From Eremomyces bilateralis CBS 781.70 (Eukaryota > Ascomycota > Dothideomycetes > Eremomycetales > Eremomycetaceae), in contig NW_022985085.1 in the NCBI RefSeq assembly GCF_010015585.1, positions 366,867 to 430,866 on the forward strand: a stretch of 64,000 nt of DNA. Reading direction: 5' to 3'. How positions within the stretch are numbered: position 1 is the first letter of the stretch; each line of letters starts with the position of its first letter. Made by a program: the position numbers and the translations under genes. The notes under the pieces are model-generated. The model saw nothing but the letters and a program-made list of their open reading frames with translations. It did no database searches and was not told where the DNA came from. Below, piece after piece: positions 10,136 to 48,402 of this stretch.

Positions 10136-11759
10136 ATGGCCGACGTCGCTACCTACATCGATGAGGAGAAAGACCTGGCGATGACCCCGCGCACTTTGTC
10201 CCCGGAAAATAACGACGGTGAGGTGGTCATCCCCGGGCAGAAATTGCCCGGGTTTTGGTGGCAGCGTTGGGGACAAGGATTGAATCTGAAGGATCAATTC
10301 GCTCATGAAGAGCATCAAGCGGTGAAGTACAAAGTCCTGGAATGGTGGTAAGTGAACAATGGGAAATTAGTATTTGGCAAAAGCTGACTCGAAGATTAGG
10401 CAGGTCGGAGCGTGTATGGCCTCTTCTCCGCTACAAGCATGAAATCGAAGGAAACTGACTGATATTCAGTGATGATCGCGGAAACGATTTCGTTAGGCAT
10501 TCTATCGCTGCCACAAGCCGTAGCCGCTCTTGGCATGATTCCGTAAGTGCTTCGCCATGCGGCCGTATTCCGATTGCTAACCTGTTCAGAGGCCTGGTCT
10601 TCATCTTCGTTATGGGAGGACTGGCCTGGATCACAGGCAATGAATACGGCAAACTGAAACTCAAGTACCCAGGCATCTGCGACGTGGCTGACTCTGGATA
10701 CATGCTATTTGGGCGATTCGGATGGTACCTTTTCTCGATCGCTCAACTGGTGGTCTTCGTGTTCATCATGGCGGCACATATCACATCCTTCTCGATCATG
10801 ATGAATGTTGTCACAGAGCACGGAGCTTGCTCGATTCTGTTTGCTCTGACGGGCTTCGGGGTCTCTTTTATCCTGGCTCTTCCACGGACGCTGAAGTCGC
10901 AATCGATCTTCTCCTTCGTGTCATGCGTATCCGTCACCGCCGCTGTGATTATCACCATGATCAGCGTCGGGGTGACCAAACCAAATCCGAACAATTTCCA
11001 GTGGGCCAACACGGCCAGCGACTTTCCGCATGCCATGGTTGCACTGCTGAACATCATCATGGCATATTCAGGACATGTTGCCTACTTTGGCTTTACCTCC
11101 GAATTGAGGGAGCCAAAGGATTTTTGGAAGTCCTTGACTATGTTACTGGGCAGTTCGTCGGTATTATATATCGTGACTGGCTGCGTAATATATTATTATG
11201 TCGGAACGGGAGTGCCATCCCCAGCTCTGGGGGCTGCGTCTCCGCTTGTCCGCAAGATTGCATATGGAATCGCCGTCCCGACCATTGTCGTTGCCGGCGT
11301 TATCAATGGGCATGTTGCATCGAAGCACGTTTACCTTCGAGTTTGGCGCGAAACCAGCGTCCCGCATGAGAGGACTTTCAAGTCATGGTCGAGCTGGGTC
11401 GGGATCGTCTTTGCTCTTTGGGTGCTGGCATGGATCATTGCAGAAGCAATCCCGAACTTCCATCACCTCCTAGCGCTCGTGAGCGCATTGTTCTGCGGAT
11501 GGTTCAGTTTCGGTATCACCGGGTTCTTCTACCTGTACCGTAACTGGGAAGACATCAGGCAAGGCAAAAGGAAGCTGGGGGTGGTGTTCAACATCGGAAT
11601 CGTCATTATGGGTTTCTTGATCGTGAGTCCATCAATCTTTGGGTCTGGCCCGCGCTAACAGTTGCCCAGTGCATTCTCGGTCTTTATGCATCCATAACAA
11701 CTCTGAGCCAAGGCGAGGGTGGATCGCCTTTCTCCTGTGCGGACAACGCTGATGAATAG
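10136..11759 (+). CDS. AAAP-family amino-acid transporter (MTR-like)
   Basis: This is a plasma-membrane amino-acid permease of the amino acid/auxin permease family, close in character to Neurospora MTR. Five exons join in frame: 10136-10347, a 14-base microexon at 10400-10413, 10470 to about 10541, about 10590-11620, and a last exon ending at the TAG at 11757-11759. The hydrophilic N-terminus leads through KYKVLEWW and the microexon into LMIAETISLGILSLPQAVA, the diagnostic first helix. About ten or eleven transmembrane helices follow. Without the final splice (GTGAGT donor near 11622) the frame would stop at 11658; splicing adds CILGLYASITTLSQGEGG and a short tail. Substrate range cannot be read from the sequence. 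Confidence 0.88.
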
Positions 11760-12938
11760 GGGGCCTAAGAGGGGTCCTCGTCGCCACGAGAGGCGTGGGA
11801 GCTGACTGCTCGATTCCGATTTGCTTTGATGCAGCGTTTAGCGATGATACCCTATGTGTCGATTAGGAATGGCTCGTCCTGTGATCCGGGTGGTCACACG
11901 GGAGAAGCTCATGTACATCCGGCGAAGTAGATCTTCAATTTAGCCGATATGAAAGGGAAAATAGACAATCGTCGAGAGTATGTCAACGTCCGTGATCAGG
12001 TTCCTGCCCAACGATATCATTTCCTGGCTCTTATCACAAACTCGTGTCTTCTCAATGGTCCTTGACGACCGCAGAAGATGGCCGTGGGTAGGGAATGACA
12101 ATCTGTTCGAGACTTAAGGATACATAATTACACGGGTCATGTCTCTAAAGGGATGGTAAGAATTCCCAAGATATTGAAGCCGAGGTCTGGTACCTGGAGC
12201 AATGCAAGGTTCGAGTAAAAGGTAGATACGGAAGATCTTGCTGCAGGGGAGATAGATCATTGGTGGGTTAAATATTGCGCGGTACAGGCCGGCGGCGGAC
12301 GAGCCAACAGCGGGGCCATCTCTCCGAATTCTGTGAGAATCCAAGCATTGTCGTCTTTGTTCATCATGTCAAAGCGAAGCAGAGTCCTTTGGCCTCGTCA
12401 TGATTGGAGCAAGCGGGTTTCAGTAGCCCTTTCATGCTCCAGGCGCGAAATCCTGAAGTTCTGCCGCCCAAAATGGCTCCCAGGCCCCCTTGGAAATGGC
12501 CGGCTGTATCATTGCCCATCCCACTGTTAGGGTAACATTGTCTGCAATCATTGCCTTTGAATGAGACAGGATGCGGATCAATTCTGCCATTTACACCCCT
12601 TGCTCTGCTTATTTGCTTTGCCATTGCTATCAATCACGCCGTTGAGCCCTTGGAAGCGGTGATTGGTGCCTTGCACACTCCATACCCGGGCCATCTCATC
12701 CCTCCTGCGGTACCTTTGCTCTGCGACAACTCTTCGAACACTACGATTTTGGCAAATTTCTCGACGGGAACTATAGACCTACCAGAAGAAAGCTTCGAAT
12801 TGGTACCGAAGAGAAGGACCGACGCTGCGTTGGCGATGCACCAACCCAGACCAGACTCGTACTTCATCAAGACCGTCTTATCACCTCCCTCGACCTATAG
12901 GCCTGTATAGTGCCGCCAAATCCGAAGTATTCGAAACC
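11760..12938. other. Intergenic, upstream of QutR-like gene
   Basis: No gene is supported. One plus-strand open frame (12551-12910) ends 29 bases before the QutR-like ATG. It has a hydrophobic start, but no splice makes it continuous with the next gene and no family is recognised. I looked here for a missing N-terminal P-loop segment of the QutR-like protein and did not find one in any frame. Confidence 0.45.
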
Positions 12939-15104
12939 ATGGTCACGATCGCCGAACCGCCTATGATGACCAGTATCGTACCTCCCGAACCCTCCGAACC
13001 CGTCGGACCCGATAGCATCACAAACCGCAAAACCAATGGGGTTATTGAGGTTCAGGAAATCGATGTTCCTGAGAAGCCGTCGCTGTTAGTCTTGATAGAG
13101 GACGGGCAAGACGAAATTCTCAGTATAGTGGCTGATGTGCTCGGGCAGCCATGTTGTCTGGTCTCATCGTGTGATACGGTCCAGCAGGAACCATATCATA
13201 CAGTCCTCGGTCTTCATAGCAAACTCGTCGCAGCGGATGTCCGAAGCTTAGCACCGAGCAGGACGGTCATCCATACTCATTGCGTGGATAATCCAGTCGA
13301 AAGTGACCCGGCTCTCTCACAGATATGTGATTATGAGTATTTGTACTCTATGACCCCGTATCTGAGGAGAGATGTAGCACGATTCCTCGGATTTATCCTC
13401 GGCCAGATAGGCCACCATCGAGATTTGACGAAGAAGAAACGAACCACTCTGATTTCAACCACATTTCCAGACGTCCATGCTGCTCTTCCCAACCTGGACA
13501 TCCTTTCTGTCGGAGCGGACGCTGTCGAACTAAGAGTGGATCTCCTCAAAGAACCACTTCCGGATGGGACCTTCCGAGATGTCCCAAGCCTCAAGTTCGT
13601 CGGGGAGCAGCTTATGACGCTACGGCAACGTACCGAACTGCCCATTATATATACGACTAGGTGTACGAAAGAAAACGGCCGTTTCCCTATGGATGAGCCG
13701 AACCTGTTCCTGACATATCTATACCGAGCGATACAGTGGGGTTGCGAATACATCGATGTCGAGTTGTGGCTACCAGAAGACATTCGACGCACTCTGTCCG
13801 AGAGGAAGGGAAACAGCAAGATCATCTCGGCATTCCACGACTTTTCGGGGACCTTTAGATGGACTGCACCCGAAGCAGAAGAACTATTTCGCCACGGAGC
13901 TGTGTATGGAGACGTGGTGAAAATGATCGCCCTCACCAACACGGTGCAGGAGAACTACGAGCTGGAGTACTTCCGGTCCACCATACAATCGAGATACCCG
14001 CATCCTCCTCTTTCAGCGCTCAACATGGGTTCCACCGGCCAGCTTTCTCGAACATTGAACAAAGTCTTCACTCCGATCACCCACCCCCTCCTTCCCATGA
14101 TTGCCGCACCCGGCCAGCTTTCGGCAGCGGAAATCAATGCGGCACTTCACACCATGGGACAACTGCCACGACGCGATATCTATGGTATCGTGTCAGCACG
14201 AGCTGCAACAAGAGCTGTCTTTTTTGAGAAGTGCTTCAATGAGCTCGGTCTTCCTCACGTTTTCACCTTTGTTGAACGCGGTCCGATAACTAGACATGCT
14301 GTCAATATCTCCTCGGTAGTTCACCGTCCCTTGTTTGGCGGGGCATACCTTAATCCACCGTTAGCTGTATCACATGCCTCATATCTGCCGCAACTCTCTC
14401 CGGCTGCCAGAGCAATCGGCCAGGTGGACACGGTCGTCCTATCAAAGACGCTTTTGGCCACAACTTCACTCGCAGTCGGACAACCTGGGATGGAAGGAAG
14501 CTCCTTTGTTGGCGACAACTGCACCTGGAAGGGGATTCGAGCGACTCTAACCCACGACTTTGTCCCCAGCGCATACCGCGGCCGCGCTGCTCTGCTCCTC
14601 GCTTCGGACGAGTCGTCCGCGACCCCCGCCATATTCGCCCTGAAGTCCTTGGCTATTGGCCCCATCTACACCGTCGGCTTCACCATCAAGGCCACACAGA
14701 CTCAGGGGCAGGAAGTCCTTGGCGTCGGACTAGGTGCTGGTTTGCAGCCTGTCCGCTCGGTCGAGGATGTCAAACGACTTGAGCGACCATTCGCTATCAT
14801 CAGTGCCTTGCCTGGAGATAAAGGTGCCTTGGTTGCACCATTGCTGCGGCATTACGGGCCTGTCAAGACGGATGAGAGCTCAAGAGGCACGGCAGGCAAA
14901 GTGTTTGTCGACTTGGTAGGTGGGACAGGGAGCCGCAGGGAGCGGGATAAGGACCCCGTGGCCGTGGCAGCAAGCCTTGGCTGGTCTGCATATGGGGTTG
15001 CGGATGTGGCTGCTTGGACAACGGTTGAGACGTTGCGGCTACTTGTGGGACAGAATGTGCCGTTTGATTTTGTGAGGTTCGCCAGTGGACGAGGGGTGTA
15101 CTGA
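12939..15104 (+). CDS. qutR-like: QutR/QA-1S-like repressor, shortened, AROM-derived domains
   Basis: This intron-less protein of 721 residues resembles the quinate pathway repressor, which evolved from the last three domains of the AROM polypeptide. The N-terminal shikimate-kinase-like part is badly eroded: no GxxGxGKS/T loop is visible and the protein is some 200 residues shorter than I recall for QutR. From about residue 165 there is a type I 3-dehydroquinase domain that keeps AVELRVD, the His of FHDFSGT (about residue 299) and the Lys of VVKM (about residue 328). The C-terminal shikimate-dehydrogenase-like domain has lost its catalytic Lys (GGAYLNPPLAV replaces the VTxPxK region, about residue 466) and catalytic Asp (GDNCTWKG instead of NTDxxG, about residue 524). 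A regulatory role fits; no quinate-use enzymes lie nearby. A residual 3-dehydroquinase is an alternative. Confidence 0.8.
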   Translation: MVTIAEPPMMTSIVPPEPSEPVGPDSITNRKTNGVIEVQEIDVPEKPSLLVLIEDGQDEILSIVADVLGQPCCLVSSCDTVQQEPYHTVLGLHSKLVAADVRSLAPSRTVIHTHCVDNPVESDPALSQICDYEYLYSMTPYLRRDVARFLGFILGQIGHHRDLTKKKRTTLISTTFPDVHAALPNLDILSVGADAVELRVDLLKEPLPDGTFRDVPSLKFVGEQLMTLRQRTELPIIYTTRCTKENGRFPMDEPNLFLTYLYRAIQWGCEYIDVELWLPEDIRRTLSERKGNSKIISAFHDFSGTFRWTAPEAEELFRHGAVYGDVVKMIALTNTVQENYELEYFRSTIQSRYPHPPLSALNMGSTGQLSRTLNKVFTPITHPLLPMIAAPGQLSAAEINAALHTMGQLPRRDIYGIVSARAATRAVFFEKCFNELGLPHVFTFVERGPITRHAVNISSVVHRPLFGGAYLNPPLAVSHASYLPQLSPAARAIGQVDTVVLSKTLLATTSLAVGQPGMEGSSFVGDNCTWKGIRATLTHDFVPSAYRGRAALLLASDESSATPAIFALKSLAIGPIYTVGFTIKATQTQGQEVLGVGLGAGLQPVRSVEDVKRLERPFAIISALPGDKGALVAPLLRHYGPVKTDESSRGTAGKVFVDLVGGTGSRRERDKDPVAVAASLGWSAYGVADVAAWTTVETLRLLVGQNVPFDFVRFASGRGVY

Positions 15105-17547: not shown

Positions 17548-20483
17548 ATGTCGCGACCCCAGGTTGGAATCGATCGCCTACCAGCGAGACGGATGAGCAA
17601 CGAACCGAGGGAGTCCATGAATTGCAAGAGTTGTCGGAAGAGAAAAGTAAGCATATTGTCCACAGAGACGATGCGACTGGCATCAGAGGGGGTCGAGTGG
17701 ATTGGGATTTATGTGCTGACTTTAAAACGGTGAAAGATAAAATGCAACCGAATGCGCCCGACTTGTGAAGCGTGCCAGATATTCGCATGCCAGTGTGTCT
17801 ATGGTGAGATCTACATTATCCATGGTAAGGTCCATTCGTACCAGAAGGTGCTGACTGTGGTCAAAGACGCTATCCCAAAGAAACGTGGGCCCAAAACCGA
17901 TGTTCTCGAGGCATTGCTCAAGCGTGTCGACGGCCTTGAAAAGAGACTACAAACCGAAGAATCCGAGAAACAAGAAGAAGAGCCGGTGTCGTCAAACGAA
18001 AGTGCAGTCGACAATGTCGTACAAGACTCAAGTCACGGTGCCGCGAACGATCAAGCCGGAGCGACTGCAAATCACAAATCTTCCGAACCAGAGCAACCCC
18101 ATTCGAACAACATACCACCGCTCATCCCCCCGGAAGGCAACTCGTACGTGGATCCAACACCCAGAATAATGGTACAGTACTGACAATACACAGCCAACCC
18201 CCTCCCAGTATATACCCGGAGGTGCTCGTCGATGCATACTTTGCTCAACTTCATGGCAAACCCTACTATATCCTTGATGAATTGTCCACTCGCCAGAAGA
18301 TACAACTTAAGCAACTTCCGAACCCGCTTGCTTATGCTATATATGCTGTTAGCGCAAGGTGAGAACGGATCCCCCTCGAAGCCTTATGACATCCACAGAC
18401 TAACTGGAATTCGAGATATGCTTCTCATGTCGGAGGCTATGCAAATGCTGTACGCGTGTCGATAGATTTCGCTAAGAAGGCTCGGCTTGAGCTCGACGTA
18501 GACGAGCCCTCTATCGAATCGTTACAGGCACTCCTGCTACTGTCGTTAGCAAGCTATCAAAATGGACGAGGAAAGAAGGCGTACATGCTTTTATGTGAGT
18601 TCACGTTCAAATTGATCCCGCCATGTCTGACACTAGGTATAGCCTCTGCTATTACCATGGCTCTAGCTCTAGGTCTCCATAGGGAACTCCCCTCAACAAT
18701 GAGGATCCCCGCCACTGAACGAGAAGGTCGAAGACGATTGTTCTGGGCGTGCTATCTCCTCGATCGATTTGGAGCTTGCGGTTCGAGACGGCCATCCCTG
18801 ATTGCCGACGAATCCATCGTCCTCCGGCTGCCCTCATGGCAGCTTCATCCAAGCGGCATGACCATCGAAGGCGATTACTTCTCGACCGGTTCGAATCTCC
18901 AATATCTAAGAAGTGGGAAGCAAAGTCATGGAGGGAGTGGCATGCTTATTGGTATCACTCGAATACTAGGAGTGACGAATCGATACCTAGCAAATGGAGG
19001 TGTGAAAGGGGACTCGCACTTCCCTTGGCACTCACTTTCTAATTTGTCCAAAATCCGACAAGACCTGGACATGTGGGCATCAGAGACGCAGGACGTCTTT
19101 GCATCCTTGGAGACGCTTTTCGGCCAACCAGACAGTACGATTCTCGTATTAAGCAAGCTGGTCTACCACCTTATTCATTGTCTAATCTACCGCCCATTCC
19201 TTCCCATCGACCTCACCGAGCTCTCCGGTAATAGTCAGCATCAATCCTGGCAAATCGAAGCGACGAACATGTGTTTTCTCCACGCCAACGCAATTTCTGA
19301 GCTCGTCGAGATCGGGAAGGCATCTACCCTTATTGAATGGCCGGAATTTATCGGCTACTGTGTCAGCACTGCTGGAATGATCCATGTTCATGGGACACAT
19401 TATCGAGGCGGCGAAGGAGGGGATCGAACCGTCTTCGCGGGAAGCCCAGAGTTCCTATCCCGAGAGATGCAGCAGCTCTCCGAACTGCGGTCCATATGGG
19501 CAGGAGTTCAACATCAGTGTGATATGCTGCAGGCAATTTACAATTGTCATATTGAACTCGTCAAATCGCTTGCTTCAAATCCTCTTCGTTTCTCATCTGT
19601 CTTTCACCTCGAAGGGTTCTTCGATCGGTACCCTGGTCGGATGTTCGACGGGTCGCATCTGTCGTTCGTCGAAATACAAGTCGACCCAATGGCATTTGAG
19701 AGCACCATGTCTCCATACGGACTCAATAATCAAGGGTTTGTGAATATGGCCCTCGGGTCAAATGGATCTATGATTCATCAGCAACAGCAATACTTCCCAC
19801 CGCAACGGCAGGTGTCCGCATCAGTGCCTCAAGGGGGGCGAAAGAGAAGACGCACGACGACATCGAATCCTACCAAACCCTCACCCCCTCTCAGTGCGGC
19901 TGCTATTCCCTCAAACAGCAAAAAGCAGCCTCAGGACACTTCTGGTACTCAACCCTTTATGTCCGAGCTTCCACCACCGAACCAAACACTCTCTTCTTCT
20001 GAGACCAAGCCTCCACCCTCTCAGCAGCCTAACCCTTCGGGTCCAATCTTCTCTCCCAACTTCTCTTTCTCTCCTCTCCAACCTACGAATTTCCCGAATC
20101 CCACAAACAACGCCACAAATCCCTCGCAGCCTTCCTCTACTAATAACTATAACAATAACGGCCCATCCTACCGTTTCCCTGACCAGCTGCTCTCCCTTCC
20201 CTTCGACGGATCAACAAGCACGGATCCATCCGGCCAACCGATTTTGGGATACGAAGCGTCCGGCACGAATACGATGTCCAATTCGGCGTTTGTGAGCATG
20301 CCCGGCCCATCCGACATGCAGACACCCGGATCAAGTTCGGCGGTGAGCGGAGGCGGGACGAGTGGAAGCGCGGAAGGGGAGAAGGATCCTTTCTTGAGCT
20401 TACTTGAACAGCTTGCGGAGAGCGAAGGACCGGATGGAGGAGGTCTCGATTTGGATTTCTTCCTGGCTGGTGGGAACGCCTAA
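17548..20483 (+). CDS. Zn(II)2Cys6 transcription factor with fungal_trans domain
   Basis: Six exons join in frame. The start is the ATG at 17548; one at 17593 is also possible. Exon 1 (to 17646) encodes CKSCRKRK and exon 2 (17737-17803) encodes [13 protein letters not shown] and the last cysteines, giving a binuclear zinc cluster at about residues 28-56 with one extra Cys (CQC). The linker [21 protein letters not shown] matches the linker and dimerisation coil of XlnR/Ctf1-type regulators. The middle region ([15 protein letters not shown] ... [10 protein letters not shown] ... [14 protein letters not shown]) is a fungal-specific transcription-factor domain. The C-terminal 200 residues are Gln/Asn/Pro/Ser-rich with an acidic, hydrophobic end ([11 protein letters not shown]), a likely activation domain. 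Target genes are unknown; the nearest downstream gene is the rhodopsin-permease fusion. Confidence 0.88.
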
Positions 20484-22056
20484 AACATCTGTATTTGTCT
20501 GGATGGTTGCGTGGGTCGGAGCTTTTGACAGGTTCATATGAATCTGGGTTATCTGGTCAAACAGGAAGGTCAGGGCCATGAATGTCTATATGATAGTTTT
20601 TATTATTGTAAATTTAACGTTTTGATGAATCGTGACGATATATGCTCGATTTCTGTTTAGTTGCCGTGGCTTGACATGTGAAAGAGAGAGAGAGTGAGAG
20701 ATTCATACGCCCGTCAGGCCTCTCTGCGAGGCCCATGTGGGGAACTAGCTAGGATGACTAATTACATTATGGTTGCCTTGTGTCCTTATGGCCTTGTCAA
20801 TATATCATATCAGTATTTCTTTCCTGCCGCTTTCCATTTTCCGCGTCGCTTGACATGTGCGGTCGTCTGTGGTCTTGCCATAATATCGTGAAGACTGAAT
20901 TATATCCACGTGATGATCGACAATCCGGCAATCTAGTCCAGATTTTCAACCTTCGTTCCTTTCCATCAACCAAATATTCCGTACACGTACCGTATCGCAT
21001 ATCAACCGCGGCGTATTGCCGCTCTCAAGAACGATATGTATCGTCATTTGGTCGCATAAAAGTTCCCTACCCCCGCATTCGCATTTTGCCCTCGAGGGAT
21101 GCTGTGTGCAGCATCCCATGGTAGCCCACTTTGTCGGCTCCAGGTTACAAGATGCAGTCTAGAACTCCAGAGGGTCCCAATCTCTCAGATAGGCCTCGTT
21201 GGATCATTAGGCGTCTGCCGTGTGCCCTTCACTGGAGTGTGCAAGACAAAAAGACTGTCTCGGTTTCACTCAATACCGGTAGCAAGCATTGAAAGGTGCT
21301 GAGAGGTCAATGGAGGGCTTGGATACCAATGACCGGAGCCAGAATGGTGCTATGATCCCGTCCTTCGTATTATACGACGACTGACGGCATTGTTGCTGCG
21401 GCTCATATCACGATCCTGCAGACGTCAATCCATAAGTACTTATTTTTCGCTATTCATTCTACTTCATTATATATTAATACAGAGCCACTAACGGGGCTCC
21501 GCCTTGAACATGTCAGATTGTACACATAATATTCGTCATTGGTCAGGTTCGCGGCAGCATCCGAACCAGACGTTGTCCCAGGAGCTGGATACTGTGGAGA
21601 TGTCTGTCCCAAGCTTTAGACGACCGAAGAGATGGTCATGCGGGAGTCTCGGTTTCCTTGTTATATCTCTGGTTTATCTTCTCCTTGAAAGTCGAGACTT
21701 AGCTTGTCGAACATACCGCAACTCATCTACTCCGATTGTTCCGTTTTGCACTGTTCCGATGTTGACAGCTGGGTATCGTACAACCGGACTTTATAAGCTA
21801 TCTTCGGCATAGACCCTTCCACGATCCATATGGTTCCTCGTTCAAATGATTCCACACTTCTGACGCCAGACGCAGTCTCACCACTCATCGCCTATAGAAT
21901 CATACCTATTAGCTAGCTATCTCGTATCTTGCTCTCGATATACAAACCTCATGTCGAACAACCTAGTCGCTCAAGTCGAGGTCTAGGGAATCCTTATACG
22001 ATGCATATTCGCATCACACGGTTCATGAAAGCCTGCTAGGTTCCATTCTATCCACC
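20484..22056. other. Intergenic with a GA microsatellite
   Basis: No gene is supported. A short GA-rich simple repeat lies at about 20682-20700. A plus-strand open frame from an ATG near 21510 to 21812 could encode a single hydrophobic helix, but it has no recognisable family and poor coding character. The right end is the promoter and leader of the fusion gene. Confidence 0.45.
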
Positions 22057-24952
22057 ATGGAGCCCATGGAGCCGTCGCTGCTGATACCAGCTCATGAGGA
22101 GTACGTAGGAGGGGTCTTCCCGGATCGCTCTCTATCAGTACTCGCAGTAACAGCGATTATGATAACGTTGGCGGCAGTGTTTGTCCTCTTCCGCATGGCT
22201 TCTAGAGTTGGCATAGTCAAAAAGTTGGGATGGGACGACTACTTCATGATACTAGCCTTGGTAAGCCTTTGCATCACTCCCTTCGGCTATGGATCGGCGG
22301 TGCTAACGGAAAACCACCATAATAGGTCATCGCATTTGGCATGTCCTTTTCAATATGCTATGCGACGAGATGGGGGCTCGGGCGGCACGACATCAATATT
22401 CCGTTCGAATGGTTTTCGCTGTTAAAAACCCTTGAGTATATCTTTACGGTGCTTTATGTGGGCCTACCTTGTATGAGTTCAAAAGCGCACATCGCTGACT
22501 TGCTTTACAGCAACCAGCGTTAATGGCCTCGAAGACGTCAATCCTGATATTCTACCTGCACCTATCGAAAGGCAACAGTCTCATCTGGTGGCTTACCATT
22601 GTGACAATGGTCGTAGTCAACACCGTCGGGTTTGCATTGACTATGCTCAGCGTCTTTCAATGCCGCCCATTGAAATCTATATTCGACCCGCGTATAACCG
22701 CATCGACGTGCATCGACATTTTATCACTTTATCTCTCATCATCACCACTAAACCTGATCACGGATCTCGCGATGCTCTTTCTTCCGATGCCGCTCCTGAC
22801 GGGCATGCGGCTACCAAGGAAACAGAAGATCATCCTGATCATCACCTTTGGTTTTGGCCTTTTTGTGACGGCCATAGATGTCGTGCGCGTGGCGTATCTC
22901 CAGCAGGCGTTGGAAACTCGACTCCAAGAAGCACACGACCACCCTGAAGATCAGAGTCCCAACAACTATCTCAACTTCCACTGGTATGCCGCACTCTCAT
23001 ACATGTGGAGTGCTGTTGAAGTGAATGTGGGAATAATGTGCGGATGCGTGCCAGCACTAAAGCCGCTTGCGTCGAGGTTTTTGCCGCGCGTCCTTCGTGA
23101 TGATCGCTCTCCATCCACTGAGGTTCCTGGTCTCACATTGCAGACTGCACGCAAGGCATCCGAGCAGAACGATTTGCAACCAATGGTGTCGGAGCCGGAG
23201 CAAGTACTCAATGCTGAGAGGGCAGTAGACGAGCCAATGGGGATGATGGACTTCATCGATACTCCTAATCTGAACCAACTCCCTTCGGGGGTGAGGCCGT
23301 CGATAGCATCAAACGCATATCATCGACCCGAGGCGGCGACGCCAAGGGCGAGCGTCGCTGATGATACATTTTACGGCTTCATCGACATACAGCAGAGACG
23401 AAAGCTTGTTAACTTGACGGCCCGCCAGTCGCTATTCCCAATAACCATGGTTACGATCTTGTTCTTTTTGTGGGGTTTCGAGTACGGACTCATAGATGTT
23501 CTTAACCGCCAGTTTCAACAGGCAGTAGACATGTCTGATGGGCAGCTCGTCGCCCTTCATTCTGCCTATTTCTCCGGCTATTTCGTCGCTCCCCTGACGT
23601 TCGGTCGAATAATTTTGAAGCGGTTGGGTTTCAAACCGTGCTTTCTGGCTGGACTTTTCATCTATGCCTGTGGGATCCTCGTGTTCTGGCCCTCTGCGGT
23701 GCTCACATCATTTCCAGCTCTAATTATCTCGAACATCATCGTCGGTATGGGGCTTGCGACATTGGAGGTTGGGGCAAACCCATTCATCGCACTTTGCGGG
23801 CCGTCTGCATATGCGGAGGTAAGACTCAGCATCTCGCAGGGAATTCAAGCAATCGGCAGCCTTGTCAGTCCTCTCCTCGCCGAGCGAGCTCTCTACAAAG
23901 TCGTGGCAGACAAGCCATCTCTTATCGACGCTCAATGGGCCTATCTCGGTATTGCACTGTTTACCGTCCTCCTTGCCGTCGTCTACTACTACCTCCCGCT
24001 TCCGGATGGCACCGACGAGGACTTCGAAACGGCTCCACCCTCTCGAAACGCCGCCTTTCCTGACCATACAGAAGTACGCATCCCATTCCTCGACCGATGG
24101 ACCTGTATTGGGCGCATACAAATCGTGACTCTAACCGCTATTCTCGGCGTCGGGTCCCTGTTCTTCTACTGCGGTGGCCAAGAAGCGGTCTCCACGTCCA
24201 TCGTCACATACATTAATCTGCTCCATCCCTTCCGAACCCTCACCATTTCAGGCTACCAATCCATATGCCATGGCATATTTGCGTTTGGTCGCTTCCTCGC
24301 CGCAGGCCTCATCTACTTCATCAAGCCGCGCCGCATCCTCCTCTCCTGCTTCCTAGGAGCATTGATTTTCTCCATCTGCGCTATGAACTTCCGTGACATC
24401 AATGACGGTGTCCCATCCGTAACTTTCATCGTCCTAATCAGCTTCTTTGAAGGCCCAATCTTCTCTATCATATACGCCATGGCAATCCGTGGAACCGGGA
24501 AACACGTCAAGATGACCAGTACGTTCCTCACGGCCGCTATCTCCGGGGGTGCTTGTTTGCGTCCGATCATGTTTGTCGCATTTCTTCGCCATGATGCGCT
24601 TTATAGCTACTGGGTTGTCGTCATGGCGTTCGCGTGTGGGACTGTGTTTCCCTTGTGGCTGTGGCTGGATCCTCGGCCGAAGAAGATCGTGGACCCTGGT
24701 CAGAGGCTGTGTGATTGCTCGGCGTTGAGGAAGCCGAAGGGACAGGACGAACGGAAGGGTAAGATGCGAGAGCAATGCGGAAGTGGGAACGTCAATGCCG
24801 CGAGGGGTCCCGAGCCGAGGGGACAGGAACCGAGTGAGAACATCTTTGAGAAGGACTGGGCTCTACCTTTCCGCCAGGGGCAGGAAGATGTAGAGCATAG
24901 TGGTGGATCGAGCAGGTCACGGGACCATGGCTCACATGAGCCATCGGAATGA
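22057..24952 (+). CDS. Fusion: fungal rhodopsin-like 7TM domain plus FucP-type MFS permease
   Basis: Three exons (22057-22260, 22326-22457, 22511-24952) give about 925 residues in one frame. Intron 1 is canonical. Intron 2 has a weak GTGGGC donor but a good CTGAC branch and TTTACAG acceptor, and both introns are in phase 0. Residues 25 to about 335 form the fungal rhodopsin-like domain of PTH11/SAT4-related membrane proteins: seven predicted helices, the WDDYFMILAL signature and QPALMASKTSILIFYL. A hydrophilic linker of roughly 100 residues follows. From about residue 450 there is a full twelve-helix major facilitator of the fucose permease (FHS) type, with ILFFLWGFEYGLIDVLNRQF and GANPFIALCGP. 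The last 90 residues are charged and cytosolic. Both halves look complete and no stop separates them. Function as a receptor-coupled transporter is inference. Confidence 0.87.
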
Positions 24953-25761
24953 TTCGTTTGCTTTGGTTGCTTTGGCTGTTTTGGCGTATGTTTACTTTTT
25001 GGTATAACACACAGCGTTGGATGGAAGCGTTTTGTCTGCACTGAATACCCCCTCCTTGAATTTACTGATCGTTTACACATCTTTGTTTTAATCTTCACAA
25101 CACCACACCAGTCTTCTTGTCTACTGTGCGTAGCTGTCTACCATTCTGGACACTACAATGAAAACAGTTCGCATTTAAGAGGCGCCCCTGGCTCCTTCGA
25201 AATTGAACAACCCCCAGTGAAAACTTCCTGGGAATCCATAATCCATATTGACCACGGTCAGAATGGCTGACTCAGCAAGCTATCCCTGTTAATCACTCGA
25301 CGGGCAATGCTGAATCCTCATTCAAAGCACTTGCACCCTCCTTTCGTCCTAAGCACCCTTCATATTCCGCAAACGATCGGCGTGTTGACTTCGGTTGCAT
25401 CAACTTCCGTCACCGGGGTTACCCTGACTGCGAGAATATCCTGTTCTGTTTACCGCAACTGGACAGTGCAACGGGCGGCATCCATCATGAGACTGTGAGG
25501 ATTTCATGCGCCATCGTGGCTGAATGTGCTTGGGACAGATACTTCACTGAAACGAGAGGTGAGCCGAGATCAGTTAGGATAGTTGCCTTAGAGCAAAGGG
25601 TTACTACTTCTATGTCCCATCAGACAGCATTTCGATTAAAGGTTAGTTCATACCCAACCAAGGATAGGTGGCAGTGTTGATTAAGGCAAAACAGGTGATA
25701 CCTACCGCGTTGTTCCGTTATTCGAACAATTTGAGTTCCCCCACAACGATCTCCCCCCAAG
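24953..25761. other. Intergenic, 3' of the fusion gene
   Basis: No gene is supported. Open frames are short. The right part, from about 25300, may be an extension of the decayed gene at 25762-26430, but I could not align it to any reading frame with confidence. Confidence 0.4.
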
Positions 25762-26430
25762 TTGGGAAATCCTGAAACGGCAACCCAGATCGCCAGTAAA
25801 CGCTCAGACAAAATTTCAAAGGCAATATGTGATATTAATGAACCGGACCTATGGGATTACTGCGGTTACCCTCATCCCGAAGTCTCGACAAACGTGGTAC
25901 TTGACGCACAACATGAACCAATACCACCGTTTGACAATGGCTGCACATTATTTCTCTGTGCAGATATCAATGAGCAATACCGTGAGAAGCGCATAGTGAT
26001 CGTGCCAAAGGCGGGGACATAGGTTGTTCATGTCTTCAAAACAGAATAGCAACTCGACATCATCCAGCAGTACCACAATGTCACCGCATATCCGCTTCAG
26101 TACATCAATATCGAGTACTTGTTCGCTCGGTCCGCTTTCACTGGGCTGGACTATTGCCGATTCATTCGACAAGGCAGCAATCGAGATCTACTATTCGGAC
26201 GGACACTGGATGTCGCACGCCATATACAACGAGTCCCTGGTAGTGGAAGTTTGGGGATTGCTATGAAGTTGATAAATGCAATGTCGGAACAAGAGCTATA
26301 ATTGGAACGCATCTACCTTGGTGAGCGGGTGCAAAGCCGCAAGAGGAAGAGGGAGCTGGAGGTGGTAGTGAAATCGGAGGAAGACAAAGAGAAAAACCGG
26401 AGGAAACTACCTGGGGAGAGGGATTTCTGA
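25762..26430 (+). pseudogene. Decayed fungal gene with in-frame stops
   Basis: A single frame reads as protein from 25762 to about 26430 but is broken by stops at 26020, 26044 and 26299, then at 26428. Around the stops the sequence remains protein-like: RIVIVPKAGT, then VVHVFKTE, then QLDIIQQYHNVTAYPLQYINIEYLFARSAF, then SRKRKRELEVVVKSEED. Two stops are TAG where CAG would read Gln and one is TAA where CAA would read Gln, so C-to-T change in CpA explains all three. I do not recognise the family with confidence; it may be a fungal accessory-genome protein. The N-terminus and original length are unknown. Confidence 0.5.
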
Positions 26431-27486: not shown

Positions 27487-28873
27487 TTAATCGTAACAGA
27501 AACAATAAGGGAAGCCAGACATGGTATCTAGAGCTGCTCGAATTGTCGTCGACTCGCCAACCAAGTCCGCGCCAATTACATCATCCAACATGGCGTTAGG
27601 ACTCGGTGGCTCATTTTTCCGGGTCCTCGTGCCGTGAACGACGTTCAACCGGTTTGCATTGTCCAATTCTTGATTCTGCCATGTCCAAAACACTCGATCC
27701 AGCATGGTGTGGTGAAACCAGAACGCCGGGTCGGCGGGAGAGGTATAAAAGTCCGAGCCGGGGTCGCCGCCGATGGTGAAGTGGCCGGCGCCGTGAATGC
27801 CGGGTATGTTTCGGCTTGCGATGCCGTTGAGAAACGCTTGGTAATCCTCGATTGTCTGGGGCTCGGAGATGGCGCGAGCAACGTCGCTGTCTTTCAGGGC
27901 AGCGGTGGAAACCGCGGGATTGAGGTCGCGACGGATGCAGCGAGGGTTGTAGGCGTAGCCGTCCTCGCGATCGTTCATCTTGATGTTGTCAAGTTTCGTG
28001 GAGACGGGCCCGAGGTTGACCTTCCAGCTGTTCACTGTGTTAGAGCAATTGGGCACAACTGGAGATCCGATATATGTTGCACGTACTCTTTGAATGGACC
28101 ATTGGTGATGCAACCGCCACCTCCCTGGTTCGAGACTGTTAGAAGTGGTGGATCGCCAATTTCGTAGGCAGTGTAGTTGTCATATAAGCCAGTCCCACCA
28201 AGGCTTAAGTCGCTTCCGTCAAAGACAGGAGACTTTCTTGGGTCGTCGCTGTGCCTAGCCCAATTCCAATACTGAGTCCGGATTAGAAGGTGTAGGATAA
28301 GCTGATTAAGGGAAGATTTACTGGTTGGTAGCCTTCATACCCGCATTCATTTCGAAGAGCTGACTCGAATAAGAAAATAAAATGCCGGTGCCATGTCAAG
28401 AAGTTGCCCTATTGCTCATCAGATTATGAGGGTCCAGTAATACATCTCAGTCTAGCCTACAGTATCATGAATGGTCTGTGACTGGTCCATATGCGCAAAG
28501 ACAAAGTCATCGTATCGAGTCCTGGCGCCTGGCACTTTGGCGGGATCTAAGGTAGTAGGAAGATTTCCCAAGCACTTGACCGCGTCGATGTAACTTTGCC
28601 TCTCCGTGGGCTCCAAGTATCCCCTATAGTCTTCGATCAGTCTGTGGCAACGGAGGAGGTTGAAGAAATATCTCACCATTCCCTTCGCCGAGCAGCGTTC
28701 TGAACTCCGCAACTATTATTGGTCCCAACCGGTGAGACATCCCTCGCGAACACGTTCCCACGTGCACGCATAGCGAGCCTATCAGTCTCTAAAAATGAAC
28801 TGGAAAAAACACCTTGAGCGAAAACAGTCTGGGCTGCAGAAAGCAGGGACAACGAAAGAAATAGTCGCACCAT
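27487..28873 (-). CDS. Secreted short tyrosinase / catechol oxidase
   Basis: Five exons on the minus strand join in frame to about 390 residues. The N-terminus MVRLFLSLSLLSAAQTVFAQ is a signal peptide. The copper A site is built across exons 2 and 3: His of FVFAHMDQ, His of TIHDTG and His of FLTWHRHF. Copper B is in the last exon: GIHGAGHF and the FWFHHTMLDRVFW helix. GPFKDWKVNLGP, made by splicing at a GTACGTGC donor, is the conserved loop before copper B. The protein ends soon after copper B and lacks the C-terminal lid of long fungal tyrosinases, so it belongs to the short secreted class that includes Aspergillus catechol oxidase. It would oxidise phenols outside the cell; hydroxylase or oxidase preference cannot be told. 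It is divergent from the SDR gene. Confidence 0.88.
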
Positions 28874-31299: not shown

Positions 31300-31537
31300 A
31301 TAATATTCTGCACCACGTTGCGACATAACGTGCAATTAAGTTGGTTGTACCATACAAACGCATCCCCTATTGCCAGTGAGACGTCAGTACTATGTTGCAA
31401 TTGGAAACCACGGTTTCAGGAACGAATTTTCAATTTGTTTGTACAATGAATTGAAATACGCAGACAGAGAGCTAATCCAGCAAGCCACAGCTGTCCTGGA
31501 TTTTCTTACGCGCTACCCACTGCTGCTGCCCTTACTC

Positions 31538-32521
31538 CTAGGCGCCAGAAGGGGGAGCAAGGCCACCGAGACCACTGCCGCCGGAGAGACCACCGAGGCC
31601 ACCAGAGAGGCCACCGAGTCCGCCGCTGAGGCCACCAAGTCCGCCGCTCAGGCCACCGAGTCCACTACCCCCGGAGAGACCTCCAAGGCCGCCGCTAAGT
31701 CCACTGAGTCCACCAAGTCCGCTGCCACCAGAGAGGCCACCGAGGCCACCACTGAGGCCACCGAGTCCACCGCTGAGGCCACCGAGTCCGCCGCTCAGGC
31801 CACCGAGTCCACTACCCCCGGAGAGACCTCCAAGGCCGCCGCTAAGTCCACTGAGTCCACCGAGTCCGCTGCCACCAGAGAGGCCACCGAGGCCACCACT
31901 GAGGCCACCGAGGCCACCGCTGAGGCCACCGAGACCGCCGGAGAGACCGCCGAGGCCTAAATCGGTGAGTAGATGTGATATGACGGTAGGTATGGAAGAA
32001 CAAACCACCCGAGAGACCACCCAGGCCACCTCCACTCAAGCCTCCGAGCAAGTCCCCGATGCCACCTCCTGAGCCTCCAAGGCCCCCAAGCAAATCCCCG
32101 ATGCCACCTCCTGACGATAAGCCTCCAAGGCCGCCGCTGAGGCCACCTGAGTTTTGGGTCAGCACTGTGCGCATCATTATCGACTGGATGCGCCAACGTA
32201 CCTAGACCGCCAGACGACCCGCCGAGTCCTCCGCTAAGGCCACCTGAAGTTCCATTAGCGCCCATGCACATCAACTGTCGACAGAACATCATTTACCAAG
32301 CCCACCGGACAGTCCACCTGGAATATTATCAGCAAATGGATATTAGTGAGCAAGAGATTGTTCAAATACCAAGGCCAGAAAGTCCATCTACTAGGAGGTC
32401 AGTACAAGCATCCCATGTATATTAAGGGTCAATGCATACCCAACTGCCTCTTCTCGTTCTCGATCGGCGCAGCGGAGCCAAGCGCCGCCAGCACGGTCAA
32501 CAGTGCTACGGAGATCTGCAT
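31538..32521 (-). CDS. Secreted Gly-Gly-Leu repeat protein with phase-1 exon modules
   Basis: Five exons (32521-32440, 32317-32297, 32243-32202, 32146-32009, 31956-31538) give 233 residues. The start MQISVALLTVLAALGSAAP is a signal peptide, followed by ENEKR, a possible Kex2 cleavage site. The rest is almost wholly repeats of GGLSGGLGGL, with two GGGIGDLLGGL units in exon 4, ending in GLAPPSGA. Every intron interrupts a Gly codon after its first base, so all internal exons are multiples of three. Exon 2 is only 21 bases. A structural, cell-surface or silk-like role is plausible, but no family is recognised. The opposite strand is also open (Glu/Ala/Thr repeats), which is a by-product of the repeat; the signal peptide and splice sites favour the minus strand. 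Confidence 0.72.
31560..31950. repeat. Tandem repeat, 147-base unit with shorter sub-repeats
   Basis: The last exon of the GGL-repeat gene contains a large tandem duplication. The segment beginning ACTACCCCCGGAGAGACC at 31664 recurs at 31811, an offset of 147 bases (49 codons), with very few differences. Within each unit there are shorter repeats of about 12-15 bases. The close match between copies points to recent expansion or homogenisation. Confidence 0.85.
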
Positions 32522-44308: not shown

Positions 44309-45181
44309 TCATATTTTCCCTTTTCCGTATTGGTCAGCCAGGTAATGTAGGTTCGACACCTTTCCAGTGTTCGCTGTCACGTTCAACCCTAGCCACTCCC
44401 TCATCTGTGGACTGAGCGAAGACTGGACTTCCTGCGACAGGGCCGCAGTCCAATTGACCTGTTGCCGAAGGAACGGCGCCGTATAATATCCGAACAGTAA
44501 TGCTCGATCTGGAAATTCGTTAGCACGGGCGACCAATGCGTATATTCTTGACAGACCAGCATCAACTGTGATATTAGCCCCTGAAGTATGCCAAACTCTT
44601 CCCTCCATGACGATGATGGAACCAGCCTTTGCTTCAAATGGCCGAAGCAGCTGGTCCGCATTGTCAGGCACGTCGGATCGGTTCATCCACTTGTGGCTGC
44701 CGGGGATGAACAGGGTGGCGCCGTTCTCGAAGTAGACATCATTCAAACACCAGACGACGTTCAATGCCCACGGCTCCTTCCACGGATCCGGCACGACGAG
44801 ACTTTGGTCCGAGTGAAGCCCCATGCTCTTACTCCCAGGCCGCGCGATATTCGCCGTGAAGTTGCTGATCAAGTAGTTCTCCCCCAATACCGATTTTACC
44901 ATTTCCACAGCGGTGGGATGCGCGATCAATTCGCGGAACAAGGCGTCCCGTTCCAAGAGATAGAAGACTCGGACGTTGCTGGCATTCGGATCGAGTTTCG
45001 GCATGAAGGTGTCCACGCCTTGCCGCTCGCTTTCCTTTGCAGCTTTCCATAACTTATCTAATGCGTCTTTCGTCCTGTCAGGATCCAAAACGTTTGGGAT
45101 AGTACACCATCCCTCCTCTTTCAGTTTCGTCTTCGCGGCGTCGACCACTGATGAATTGATGGACTCAGAGGTAGCTGTCAT
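44309..45181 (-). CDS. Phytanoyl-CoA dioxygenase (PhyH) family protein
   Basis: This Fe(II)/2-oxoglutarate-dependent oxygenase of the PhyH family has 290 residues and no intron. The ATG at 45181 (MTATSES) is chosen; the open frame extends further upstream without added family sequence. The facial iron ligands are visible: His and Asp in GLHSDQS and the distal His in VWHTSGA. IPNVLDPDRTKDAL at the N-terminus and NGATLFIPGSHKW in the core are family blocks. No clear peroxisomal signal is present (it ends GKGKI). Fungal members range from fatty-acid alpha-oxidation to secondary-metabolite hydroxylation, so the substrate is open. It is on the same strand as the alpha/beta hydrolase, 256 bases away. 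Confidence 0.87.
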   Translation of the reverse strand: MTATSESINSSVVDAAKTKLKEEGWCTIPNVLDPDRTKDALDKLWKAAKESERQGVDTFMPKLDPNASNVRVFYLLERDALFRELIAHPTAVEMVKSVLGENYLISNFTANIARPGSKSMGLHSDQSLVVPDPWKEPWALNVVWCLNDVYFENGATLFIPGSHKWMNRSDVPDNADQLLRPFEAKAGSIIVMEGRVWHTSGANITVDAGLSRIYALVARANEFPDRALLFGYYTAPFLRQQVNWTAALSQEVQSSLSPQMREWLGLNVTANTGKVSNLHYLADQYGKGKI

Positions 45182-45437
45182 ATTCGGACACGATAGGATT
45201 AAACAAACATATCGCGTATATTTTGTCGCCAACGTGAGCCGCTGTACATACATATATTCGGATCCCCATGTACGATGATCGATCTAAAACCCCATGTGGG
45301 ACTGCGGGGCCCCGCGGGGTTGTTGCCGAGGGCCCACTGCAGCCGAATGGGTCCATCCTGAATCCTGATAATATTGACATGAATATGCAAGTCCAGGCAG
45401 TCTCAGTGATTGGATGCCTGTAGGAAGATACCTGTTG

Positions 45438-46702
45438 TTATATTTTCGAGATTTCCTTCATCCAATCGGGGTTAAGCTCAGAGCTCCAAAACGTGTCCGC
45501 GCCCCTTTCCGCTTCATATTCTTGCTTCCACAACGGAGTCTCGTGCTCTAGCCACTGTGAAATTGCCTTCCCCAGTTCCCTAGGCTTTTCAAGAGGAACA
45601 GTATGGCCGGCACCATCGATTACTTCTTGTGTAACCCTCCTGGGGGCTGAATGCGCGTAAACACCCTTGTCTGTGCCCAGAGTTTTGTGAGCAAATTCGG
45701 CATACTTCGGGATTTTGTAGATGTCGGAGTTCGCGGCCCAGATGACATGGATAGAAGGCACAAGCTCTTTCATCCGCTTTTGGAGCGCAGCTAGTTCATA
45801 GAGGTGGAATCCCGGAATGACCAATTCTGCTCCGAATGAGTTGCGGTCGGTTGAGACGCCCGCAAACTCTTTCACACTGTTCGCCGGCACGGGTCTGAAC
45901 ATAGATCCAACTTCTTGTGCCTTCGGAGTGACTAATGTCACATAGGTTTTGCCGTCCGGACTGGTGACTTCTCTTAGATCATGTTCCATGACCAGTTCGA
46001 AGACTTCAGGGTCAAAAGCAGCATAATAAGGGCTTTTAAGGAAGGCTTTCCGCGCCTCGTCCTTGCTGGCCCAACGGTCCCTTCTTCTCGCCATAAGGAT
46101 AGCTCGATGGTATTTAAGAGGCCGCGGCGAATAGCCGGTTGCGTAGACCGGATCCACACACACAATCCCGGAGAAGAGTCGAGGATGCATCAGACTCGCC
46201 ATCATAAGAACAGAGGAGCCAACAGAATGTGCCACACCAACAATGGGCGCCGGCATCTTCTCATGGAAGTAGTTGACGATCTGAAGGACATCCCTAGCAT
46301 CATCATTCCAATGAGGAATATCACCAATTACATCCTCATTCAGCAGATACGATTTTCCATGCCTGCCGACGTTAGATATGACCATTAGGCAACACAAGGC
46401 AGAAACTGCACTCACCAGGCAATATCATAGGACCATATTGCCCGGATATGGTTTGAATTCCTGAAGATAGAGGTAAACAATGGCTCGTAGGATTCCTTCG
46501 TGAATCCGACACCGTGATGGAATAAGATGGTAATCGGTTCGGTGGAGCCATCCGGTGCAATGTTCGGGGCGTATTCATTTACGGACAGTCGAAGAGAACG
46601 ACGATGTTTTCTCTCGTCTCGTACACCTCGCTCGAAGCCTCGTATGTGAGATGCTGGTATGACATGCTGGTGGCAGGTCCAGACGCCATTACTTTTGTCC
46701 AT
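45438..46702 (-). CDS. Alpha/beta hydrolase with SKI C-terminus, likely peroxisomal
   Basis: Two exons join in frame to about 400 residues. The ATG at 46702 (MDKSNGVW) is used because the longer open frame at 46738 begins with TTG. Exon 1 ends WSYDIA and exon 2 continues WHGKSYLLNEDVIGDIPHWNDD. The nucleophile elbow is VGVAHSVGSSV and the catalytic His is in DGAGHTVPLEKP. The C-terminus ISKI is a variant type 1 peroxisomal signal. HVIPASHIR and LSVNEYAPN near the N-terminus match a group of fungal hydrolases that includes the peroxisomal lipase Lpx1 and hydrolases of fungal secondary metabolism. An esterase or thioesterase acting on a peroxisomal lipid is the best guess; the substrate is unknown. 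Confidence 0.82.
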
Positions 46703-47524
46703 GGTCGACGGCTGGATGAGACGTACGCTGGGTCCCAACGTTTTCGCGTCCCTGATCGACGATGACCCGACCCGAGGGGGTCAGAACGGTTTCCAAAATC
46801 CCCGCAGCCTAGAAGCAACCCCACTCTGTCAACGACGCGGAATCGGTAAGTCGCAGTCGTATGGTATCATAAAGTATATCGTTCTCGTGCATCGTAACAA
46901 CGAATTCGGAAAGGTCGTGGCGCAGACCGGGCATCCGAGGCTGTCAAAGTCGGGTCAAACTCCTGCCGGTTCTTCGGGGTTAGGAGCAACATGTAGACGG
47001 AGATAACGCTAGCACAACCTAAAGGAGTACCGTAAGGAATGGCAAGTGAATCCAAATCCCACAAACCTCCAACCTCCGACCTCCGGCGTCTTTGTAGGTT
47101 AAGATGACCAATGGTAAGATGGATGGCCAGTGCTTTGGCTGCAGTTGATCGGTATATATCTGGATGGTGAACGGATTTAACGATGGATTTAAAGAACGAC
47201 TCGTTAAGGCGGTAAGTCTCGAGGAGTGATTTAATCTGACACAACCCGTGCAGTAGCGCATTCAAAGATAAGAAAGAAATTAAAAGACAGAAGATAAAGA
47301 CTTACATTTCAACGAAGTTTGTCATCTTGTCGAGAAACAATTTGTTCCAGAAACACGGTCCCCCACCATTAAGATCCTGGAGCTAATTATGAGACTGTGA
47401 GCTTGACTGCTTGAGTGACATCAAATATTAACTGAACAGCGCGGTCTTCCTTCCAATATCAGCTGCGATATCAACTTACTTTTTGCGTCGTCATCCCCTC
47501 CATTCCTGCTTCTCCCATCGCGCA
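46703..47524. other. Intergenic, divergent promoters
   Basis: This gap lies between the alpha/beta hydrolase (minus) and the dienelactone hydrolase (plus) and should hold both promoters. A minus-strand open frame at 46867-47265 begins with an ATG and has some helical character in its first 55 residues, but no family is recognised and no splice extends it, so it is not called. Confidence 0.4.
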
Positions 47525-48402
47525 ATGGCGTGTCCGGCTTGCGTGTCCGGCACATTGCATGAAGGGACTCCGTCCGGCAAGGAGGAAACGCTGTACGGCC
47601 TACCCACCTACGTCGCCACGCCTCCATCCGGCACCCCTCCCAAGGGCACCATCGTGATCATCCCCGACGCGTTCGGCTGGACGTTCAACAACAACCGCAT
47701 CCTTGCCGACAGCTACGCGCAGAAAGGCCACTTCCGTGTGCTGCTCCCGGACTTCATGAACGGCTACGTCCTAAGTCCCGGCCTCCTGAAGAACGCGGAC
47801 TACATCTTGGCGGAGCATAAGAGCTTTGGGACGCATACCTTTTGGAAGGTCGTGTACGCCGTGCAGGCCGTGGCCATCTTCTTGCCGTGGGCGTTCGCCA
47901 CGAAGCCGGCGAAGACGTATCCCGGCGTCGTGAAGTTCATGAAGGCGCTCCGGGCGGAAGACGAGGACCATTCGGTCGGCGTCGCGGGATTCTGCTGGGG
48001 CGGGAAGCACACTTTTCTCCTGGCGCGCGATACGGAGAAGACGGCCGGGGGGAAGAGCCTGCTCACGGCGGCATTCACCGCGCATCCGAGCTACATTGCG
48101 TTTCCGGCGGACGTGGAAGCGATCAAACTGCCGTTGAGCGTGGCATGTGCGGAGAAAGACAATCAGATATCGAAAGACAATATCCTGGTCCTCGAGGAGG
48201 CGTTGAGGCAAAACCCGGCGGGGGGTGAAGTAAAGGTATATGAGGGAGCTACTCATGGTACGGAACTCTCATTGCCATGAGGTACGAAATGCTGATATTC
48301 ATAGGTTTCGCTGTGCGAGCCAATCCCCACGTTCCTAAGGAGAACGAGCAAGGGATTGAAGCGGAGGACCAGGCTATTTCTTGGTTTACACGATGGTTGT
48401 GA
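47525..48402 (+). CDS. Dienelactone hydrolase family protein
   Basis: This alpha/beta hydrolase of the dienelactone hydrolase family has about 275 residues in two exons. The ATG at 47525 (MACPACVSGTLHEG) is the usual start for fungal members. The catalytic Cys is in GFCWGGKH, the Asp in AEKDNQIS, and the His in GATHGF, which is formed across the intron (donor at about 48259, acceptor ATTCATAG). The final exon ends AISWFTRWL. These proteins hydrolyse dienelactones or related esters in bacteria; the fungal substrates are mostly unknown. G+C content of exon 1 is noticeably higher than in neighbouring genes. Confidence 0.88.

What the first reader, a model, noticed from the sequence alone, without database searches (positions are those of the whole stretch)
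22057..24952. Fungal rhodopsin-like receptor domain fused to a FucP-type sugar permease
One continuous gene encodes a complete seven-helix fungal rhodopsin-like domain (WDDYFM signature) followed by a complete twelve-helix fucose-permease-like transporter (GANPFIALCGP) and a charged cytosolic tail: about 19 membrane helices in 925 residues. Each half is known as a separate fungal family. Joined, they suggest a one-piece sensor-transporter. The linker holds many Ser/Thr and acidic residues. I cannot tell without a search how widespread the fusion is, and similar fusions may already be in databases without functional description.
Basis: partly seen in the sequence, partly recalled or inferred. 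Interest (0 to 1): 0.78.

Follow-up and report, generated by a model that had tools for sequence, protein, structure and literature searches.

The report
Fungal receptor-like protein fused to sugar transporter
One fungal gene appears to join a seven-helix receptor-like membrane domain to a complete sugar-importer domain; whether the two halves work together as a sensor-importer, and how common the join is, remains unknown.

Summary
A two-intron gene at 22057-24952 (+) encodes 925 residues: a PF20684 "Fung_rhodopsin" seven-helix domain (198.7 bits, cut-off 27), a linker of about 109 residues, a twelve-helix FucP/FHS-type major facilitator domain and a charged tail. The linker lies in the only stop-free frame of six and scores as coding like the halves. 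It does hold a possible intron (donor 23291), but the three canonical pairings of that donor keep the frame. The FucP half matches E. coli FucP (E 1.2e-31) and keeps the Asp and Glu that I recall as its proton-coupling residues; FucP is the top PDB fold match. Loop charges fit linker and tail inside. "Rhodopsin" is only a family name: no lysine lies in mid helix 7. A characterised fungal FHS protein, A. niger RhtA, imports L-rhamnose (passages). Sensor-transporter coupling is plausible but untested. No fungal genomes are held here, so the spread of the fusion is unknown; the listings of ten paper searches named no paper on it. Best reading: a proton-coupled sugar importer with a tethered receptor-like domain.

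The parts
22057..22260 (+). Exon 1: start codon, short (about 21 aa) N-terminus, TM1, WDDYFM and start of TM2
22261..22325 (+). Intron 1, 65 nt, GTAAGC...TAATAG; GCTAAC branch-like site seen in the sequence
22326..22457 (+). Exon 2 (preferred model): TM2 to TM3
22458..22510 (+). Intron 2 (preferred model), 53 nt, GTGGGC...TTACAG; alternative 22471-22517 with GTATGA donor fits PF20684 less well
22511..24952 (+). Exon 3: rest of the 7TM domain, linker, FucP domain, tail, stop
22189..23074 (+). Fung_rhodopsin domain PF20684 (residues 45-300, profile 1-236 of 237; interrupted by both introns)
   Evidence: 198.7 bits, E 1.4e-58
23108..23434 (+). Linker, residues 312-420: mostly predicted disordered, placed in the cytosol, open in one frame of six; holds a possible frame-keeping intron (23291 to 23392, 23395 or 23428)
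23432..24667 (+). FucP/FHS-type MFS domain, 12 helices (residues 420-831)
23495..23497 (+). Asp441, aligned to E. coli FucP Asp46
   Evidence: nearly invariant (90% or more of 41 rows)
23765..23767 (+). Glu531, aligned to E. coli FucP Glu135
   Evidence: invariant in the 41 rows
24680..24949 (+). Charged tail (90 aa; 17.8% acidic, 17.8% Lys+Arg), mostly predicted disordered

Best explanation
A fungal gene whose single message encodes a 19-helix membrane protein. The C-terminal half is a Fucose:H+ Symporter (FHS)-type importer that carries a sugar, most likely a deoxy-sugar or pentose such as L-rhamnose or a relative, inward with a proton. The N-terminal half is a seven-helix Fung_rhodopsin (SAT4/Pth11-type) domain with its N-terminus outside, tethered through a flexible cytosolic linker. 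The tether most likely lets the 7TM half bind a ligand or partner and regulate, stabilise or localise the importer. Shown by sequence: fused reading frame, both domains, topology compatibility, conserved Asp and Glu. Inferred: one message, transport activity, substrate, and functional coupling of the halves.
For: Both domains above Pfam cut-offs in one protein (927-aa model; PF20684 higher in the 925-aa model). Linker stop-free in one frame only, chance about 0.02, with codon scores like the flanking halves. No TATA[AT]A or AATAAA in the linker. The canonical donor inside the linker (23291) has three acceptor pairings, all frame-keeping. FucP homology to E. coli FucP (3o7q E 1.2e-31), to plasmid-borne bacterial proteins (115 of 72,556 records; 88 cover at least 80% of the query) and to 568 of 594 pattern-matched prokaryote stretches. 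D46 and E135 equivalents conserved, as is Q159. AlphaFold2 blocks of 70-98 pLDDT over the FucP half except the central loop (40-57); FucP is the top PDB match (TM-score 0.78 by target length, rmsd 6.0). Short inner loops 22 K/R in 158 residues, outer loops 14 in 187. A. niger RhtA is an FHS-class L-rhamnose importer (PMC5161314, passages).
Against: No transcript data. 29 of 50 possible GT..YAG pairs in 22950-23470 would break the frame; four of these have a canonical-type donor, at 22984 or 23038, in the helix-7 coding part. Two CCAAT boxes lie in the linker (23180, 23234) and in-frame ATGs exist there. TIGR00885 and NF007524 equivalog cut-offs are not reached (131.6 v 280.4 and 107.5 v 427 bits), so L-fucose itself is not predicted. 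The FucP N43 and N162 positions are Gly and Gln here, although Asn is nearly invariant at the N162 position in the 41-row alignment. The preferred second intron has a weak donor (GTGGGC). Two outer loops of the 7TM half carry 3 K/R each, nearly as many as some inner ones. No relative with the same fusion was available to show that selection maintains it. Pfam showed no third domain.
Confidence: 0.55

Rival explanations
1. The fusion is a transporter with a passive 7TM passenger: the Fung_rhodopsin half aids membrane insertion, trafficking or stability and senses nothing.
For: The 7TM half has only about 21 residues before helix 1 and no CFEM or other ligand domain among Pfam matches; no lysine in mid helix 7.
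Against: The 7TM half matches its profile nearly end to end with a high score (profile 1-236 of 237), suggesting maintained constraint rather than decay.
Confidence: 0.28
2. Two genes read as one: a Fung_rhodopsin gene and a separate FucP gene that starts at an internal ATG (for example 23183, 23237 or 23246).
For: In-frame ATGs exist in the linker; two CCAAT boxes (23180, 23234); some possible introns near the end of the 7TM half would break the frame; both families are known alone (recalled; RhtA).
Against: No stop in the frame across the linker, coding-like score through it, no TATA[AT]A or AATAAA, and only 327 nt between the halves.
Confidence: 0.07
3. The protein is a non-transporting sensor in which the FucP half binds sugar and the 7TM half or tail signals, as Snf3/Rgt2 do with a cytosolic tail (recalled).
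For: Long charged C-terminal tail and loss of two asparagines found in E. coli FucP.
Against: The Asp and Glu recalled as proton-coupling are conserved, which a pure sensor would not need.
Confidence: 0.1

Closest known systems
Fucose:H+ Symporter (FHS) family, TC 2.A.1.7: E. coli FucP (3o7q), A. niger RhtA
   Same: 12-helix MFS fold, ANPF-type motif, D46 and E135 equivalents; RhtA shows that a fungus uses an FHS protein for L-rhamnose (PMC5161314 passages)
   Different: The word rhodopsin does not occur in the RhtA paper; identities to the 20 listed plasmid proteins are 28-30%; equivalog cut-offs missed. RhtA was not aligned here.
Fung_rhodopsin / SAT4 / Pth11-type 7TM family (PF20684)
   Same: Nearly whole domain, 198.7 bits
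   Different: Here followed by a transporter; no CFEM match in front
Rhodopsin-guanylyl cyclase (listed in PMC12941744 passages) and bestrhodopsins (listing and abstract starts; fusion with bestrophin recalled)
   Same: A seven-helix receptor joined to an effector (a channel in bestrhodopsin, recalled)
   Different: Those are retinal proteins of another superfamily (recalled); the effectors are a cyclase or channel, not an MFS symporter

Membership tests
Fung_rhodopsin PF20684 | Pfam gathering score 27 bits and near full-length profile match | tested here: met
   198.7 bits, profile 1-236/237
MFS_1 PF07690 | Pfam gathering score 33.4 bits | tested here: met
   77 bits, two stretches, best one profile 3-338/347 (927-aa model)
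FHS/FucP-type MFS | Homology to FucP over the whole domain with conserved Asp46/Glu135 (roles recalled) | tested here: met
   FucP top PDB fold match. In one search the second-half stretch alone is weak (0.025), and N162 is not conserved.
L-fucose permease equivalog TIGR00885 | Curated cut-off 280.4 bits | tested here: not met
   131.6 bits
FHS/FucP-type MFS | Proton-coupled sugar uptake | not testable with these tools
   needs an uptake assay
Retinal (microbial or animal) rhodopsin | Retinal Schiff-base lysine in mid helix 7, or match to a retinal rhodopsin profile | tested here: not met
   in residues 266-305 the only Lys is 296, at the inner end of helix 7; Pfam lists no family but PF20684 and MFS_1 with E up to 1
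Pth11-type CFEM receptor | N-terminal CFEM domain | tested here: not met
   no CFEM match with E up to 1; about 21 residues before helix 1
GPCR | Coupling to a heterotrimeric G protein | not testable with these tools
   needs an assay

The most novel reading that the evidence does not exclude
A one-piece sensor-importer: the 7TM half detects an extracellular cue and, through the cytosolic linker, gates or tunes a proton:sugar symporter in the same chain, or reports its flux to signalling. That would be a receptor-transporter fusion of two families that no paper listed in my searches was seen to describe as joined.
Probability: 0.2. Interest if true: 0.8.

Novelty: new variant of a known kind. 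Interest (0 to 1): 0.5.

Why it matters
Fungal PF20684 proteins form a large family with few known functions (recalled). A natural fusion to a sugar importer would link one of them to a nutrient and give an assay (sugar uptake, with and without the 7TM half) for what such domains do.

Tried and rejected
Rejected: the second intron with the GTATGA donor (22471-22517), because it fits PF20684 less well; pairing that donor with the acceptor at 22510 breaks the frame. A retinal light sensor, for lack of a mid-helix-7 lysine.

Led nowhere: relatives of the exon-3 protein in viral contigs (no pattern match) and genome contigs (32 pattern matches, 0 relatives); rhodopsin-half search in viral contigs (35 pattern matches, 0 relatives); a WDDYFM DNA pattern in viral contigs (79 stretches; tblastn of the rhodopsin half at E 0.01 against all 163 loci then held and the window hit only the window). 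The prokaryote relatives were sought with the FucP half only. Ten paper searches listed no paper seen to describe this fusion; one search was aimed at bestrhodopsins, searches listed only 20 of 29, 20 of 1,901 and 15 of 20 papers, and the library lacks most subscription papers, so this absence is weak evidence. No whole genome is held for the window.

Full report
Gene. The reported coordinates are exact: ATG at 22057 and stop at 24950-24952 on the + strand. Exon 3 lies in a stop-to-stop frame of 817 codons. A competing second intron (22471-22517) has a more usual donor but lowers the PF20684 score from 198.7 to 190.7 bits; a third choice gives 189.5. Other frame-keeping pairs listed were not scored. 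The choice between the scored pairs changes only a few residues in TM3. Searches used the 927-aa model.

Is the fusion real? Pfam finds PF20684 and MFS_1 in one protein and no other family with E up to 1. The 327-nt linker (23108-23434) has no stop in its frame, while each of the other five frames has 2 to 6. Markov-resampled linker sequence, and same-length stretches of flanking DNA that I took as non-coding (20601-22000 and 24961-26200), are each stop-free in about 2% of draws. A codon log-odds score trained on 12 other long reading frames of the window is highest among the six frames in all three 150-base windows lying in or mostly over the linker (23085-23432: 0.12, 0.10, 0.02). That is similar to the FucP half and above the flanking DNA. 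The signal is weak in absolute terms: exon-1 windows and several 7TM windows score near or below zero, and the window just before the linker (22986-23135) is not highest in this frame.

Possible introns at the junction. A scan of 22950-23470 found 50 GT..YAG pairs of 45 nt or more; 21 keep the frame and 29 break it. Nine pairs have a canonical-type donor. The three from donor 23291, the only such donor inside the linker, keep the frame (102, 105 or 138 nt; the first two with a branch-like site at 23358), so use of them would shorten the linker without separating the halves. Two from donor 23027 also keep it. Four, from donors 22984 and 23038, break it; these donors lie in the helix-7 coding part, so their use would also cut the PF20684 domain. 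The linker has no TATA[AT]A or AATAAA but has two CCAAT boxes. Transcript data would settle it and are not available here.

Transporter half. phmmer matches E. coli FucP (3o7q, E 1.2e-31; the second-half stretch alone is weak, 0.025). TIGR00885 fucP matches with E 4.2e-38 but below its curated cut-off. Among 72,556 plasmid records, 115 hold a match, all under 60% identity; 88 cover at least 80% of the query; the 20 listed are 28-30% identical and 19 of them are annotated as fucP or fucose transporter, the other record having no annotation. I checked 42 of the 80 for open frames (all 42 open) and aligned 40 of these with the window protein, leaving out L007 and L013. The residue aligned to FucP E135 is invariant in the 41 rows, and that aligned to D46 is the same in at least 90%. 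Their role in proton coupling is recalled. FucP N43 and N162 are replaced by Gly and Gln, although Asn is nearly invariant at the N162 position. AlphaFold2 on the exon-3 protein (810 residues, lacking TM1-2) gave mean pLDDT 66.6. Ten-residue blocks over the FucP half are 70-98 except the central loop (40-57); linker and tail are mostly below 50, and the truncated 7TM half, which had no relatives in the alignment, is 41-78. Foldseek ranks the two FucP entries first and second.

Receptor half. The domain matches PF20684 over nearly the whole profile. Seven helices are supported by this match, not by the crude hydropathy, which shows eight peaks, nor by the low-confidence model. The only lysine in residues 266-305 is 296, at the inner end of helix 7, so the name "rhodopsin" does not imply light sensing. 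No CFEM match was found.

Topology. With helices hand-set in the 7TM half and taken from the model in the FucP half (some model helices merged), short inner loops hold 22 Lys/Arg and 11 acidic residues in 158 positions. Outer loops hold 14 and 21 in 187 (stretches are padded by five residues into helices, and the linker and tail are not counted). Single loops do not all follow the rule: two outer loops of the 7TM half carry three Lys/Arg each and one inner loop only one. The totals fit N-out for the 7TM half and N-in for the FucP half, joined by a cytosolic linker.

Literature. A. [quoted passage not shown] "L-fucose permease" genes are listed in N. crassa and P. chrysogenum expression tables (PMC4015282, PMC5848512, passages), and L-fucose permeases are named among families expanded in fungal pathogens (PMC2330156, passages). 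PF20684 is annotated on a satratoxin cluster protein 4-like gene; PF07690 in the same paper's table is seen on another gene (PMC13116585, passages). Some CFEM proteins carry the fungal rhodopsin domain (PMC12196386, passages), and a Trichoderma rhodopsin domain-containing protein is assigned to a GPCR family (PMC11384713, passage). No paper listed by the ten searches was seen to describe a PF20684-FucP fusion; I read passages of eight of the listed papers and no whole text.

Judgement. The fusion is very probably real (about 0.93). Proton-coupled sugar import by the second half is likely (about 0.65). Functional coupling between halves is a hypothesis (about 0.2-0.3). The fusion may well be present, undescribed, in protein databases; that could not be checked here.

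Noticed in passing
17734-20483 +: Fungal transcription factor upstream of the fusion gene: Fungal_trans domain in 18390-20480, preceded by a reading frame with a cysteine pattern resembling a Zn2Cys6 cluster (read by eye). It could regulate the neighbouring transporter gene.
   Followed up: partly
12777-15104 +: Type I 3-dehydroquinase domain in a 775-codon frame, possibly a QutR/qa-1S-type quinate regulator (recalled).
   Followed up: partly
27487-28179 -: Tyrosinase domain.
   Followed up: no
31340-32292: Low-complexity repeat stretch open in several frames on both strands (Ala/Thr/Glu-rich, Pro/Arg-rich and Gly/Leu-rich readings).
   Followed up: no
44309-48280: PhyH dioxygenase, alpha/beta hydrolase and dienelactone hydrolase domains in three neighbouring frames.
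   Followed up: no
10459-11658 +: Amino acid transporter domain (Aa_trans).
   Followed up: no
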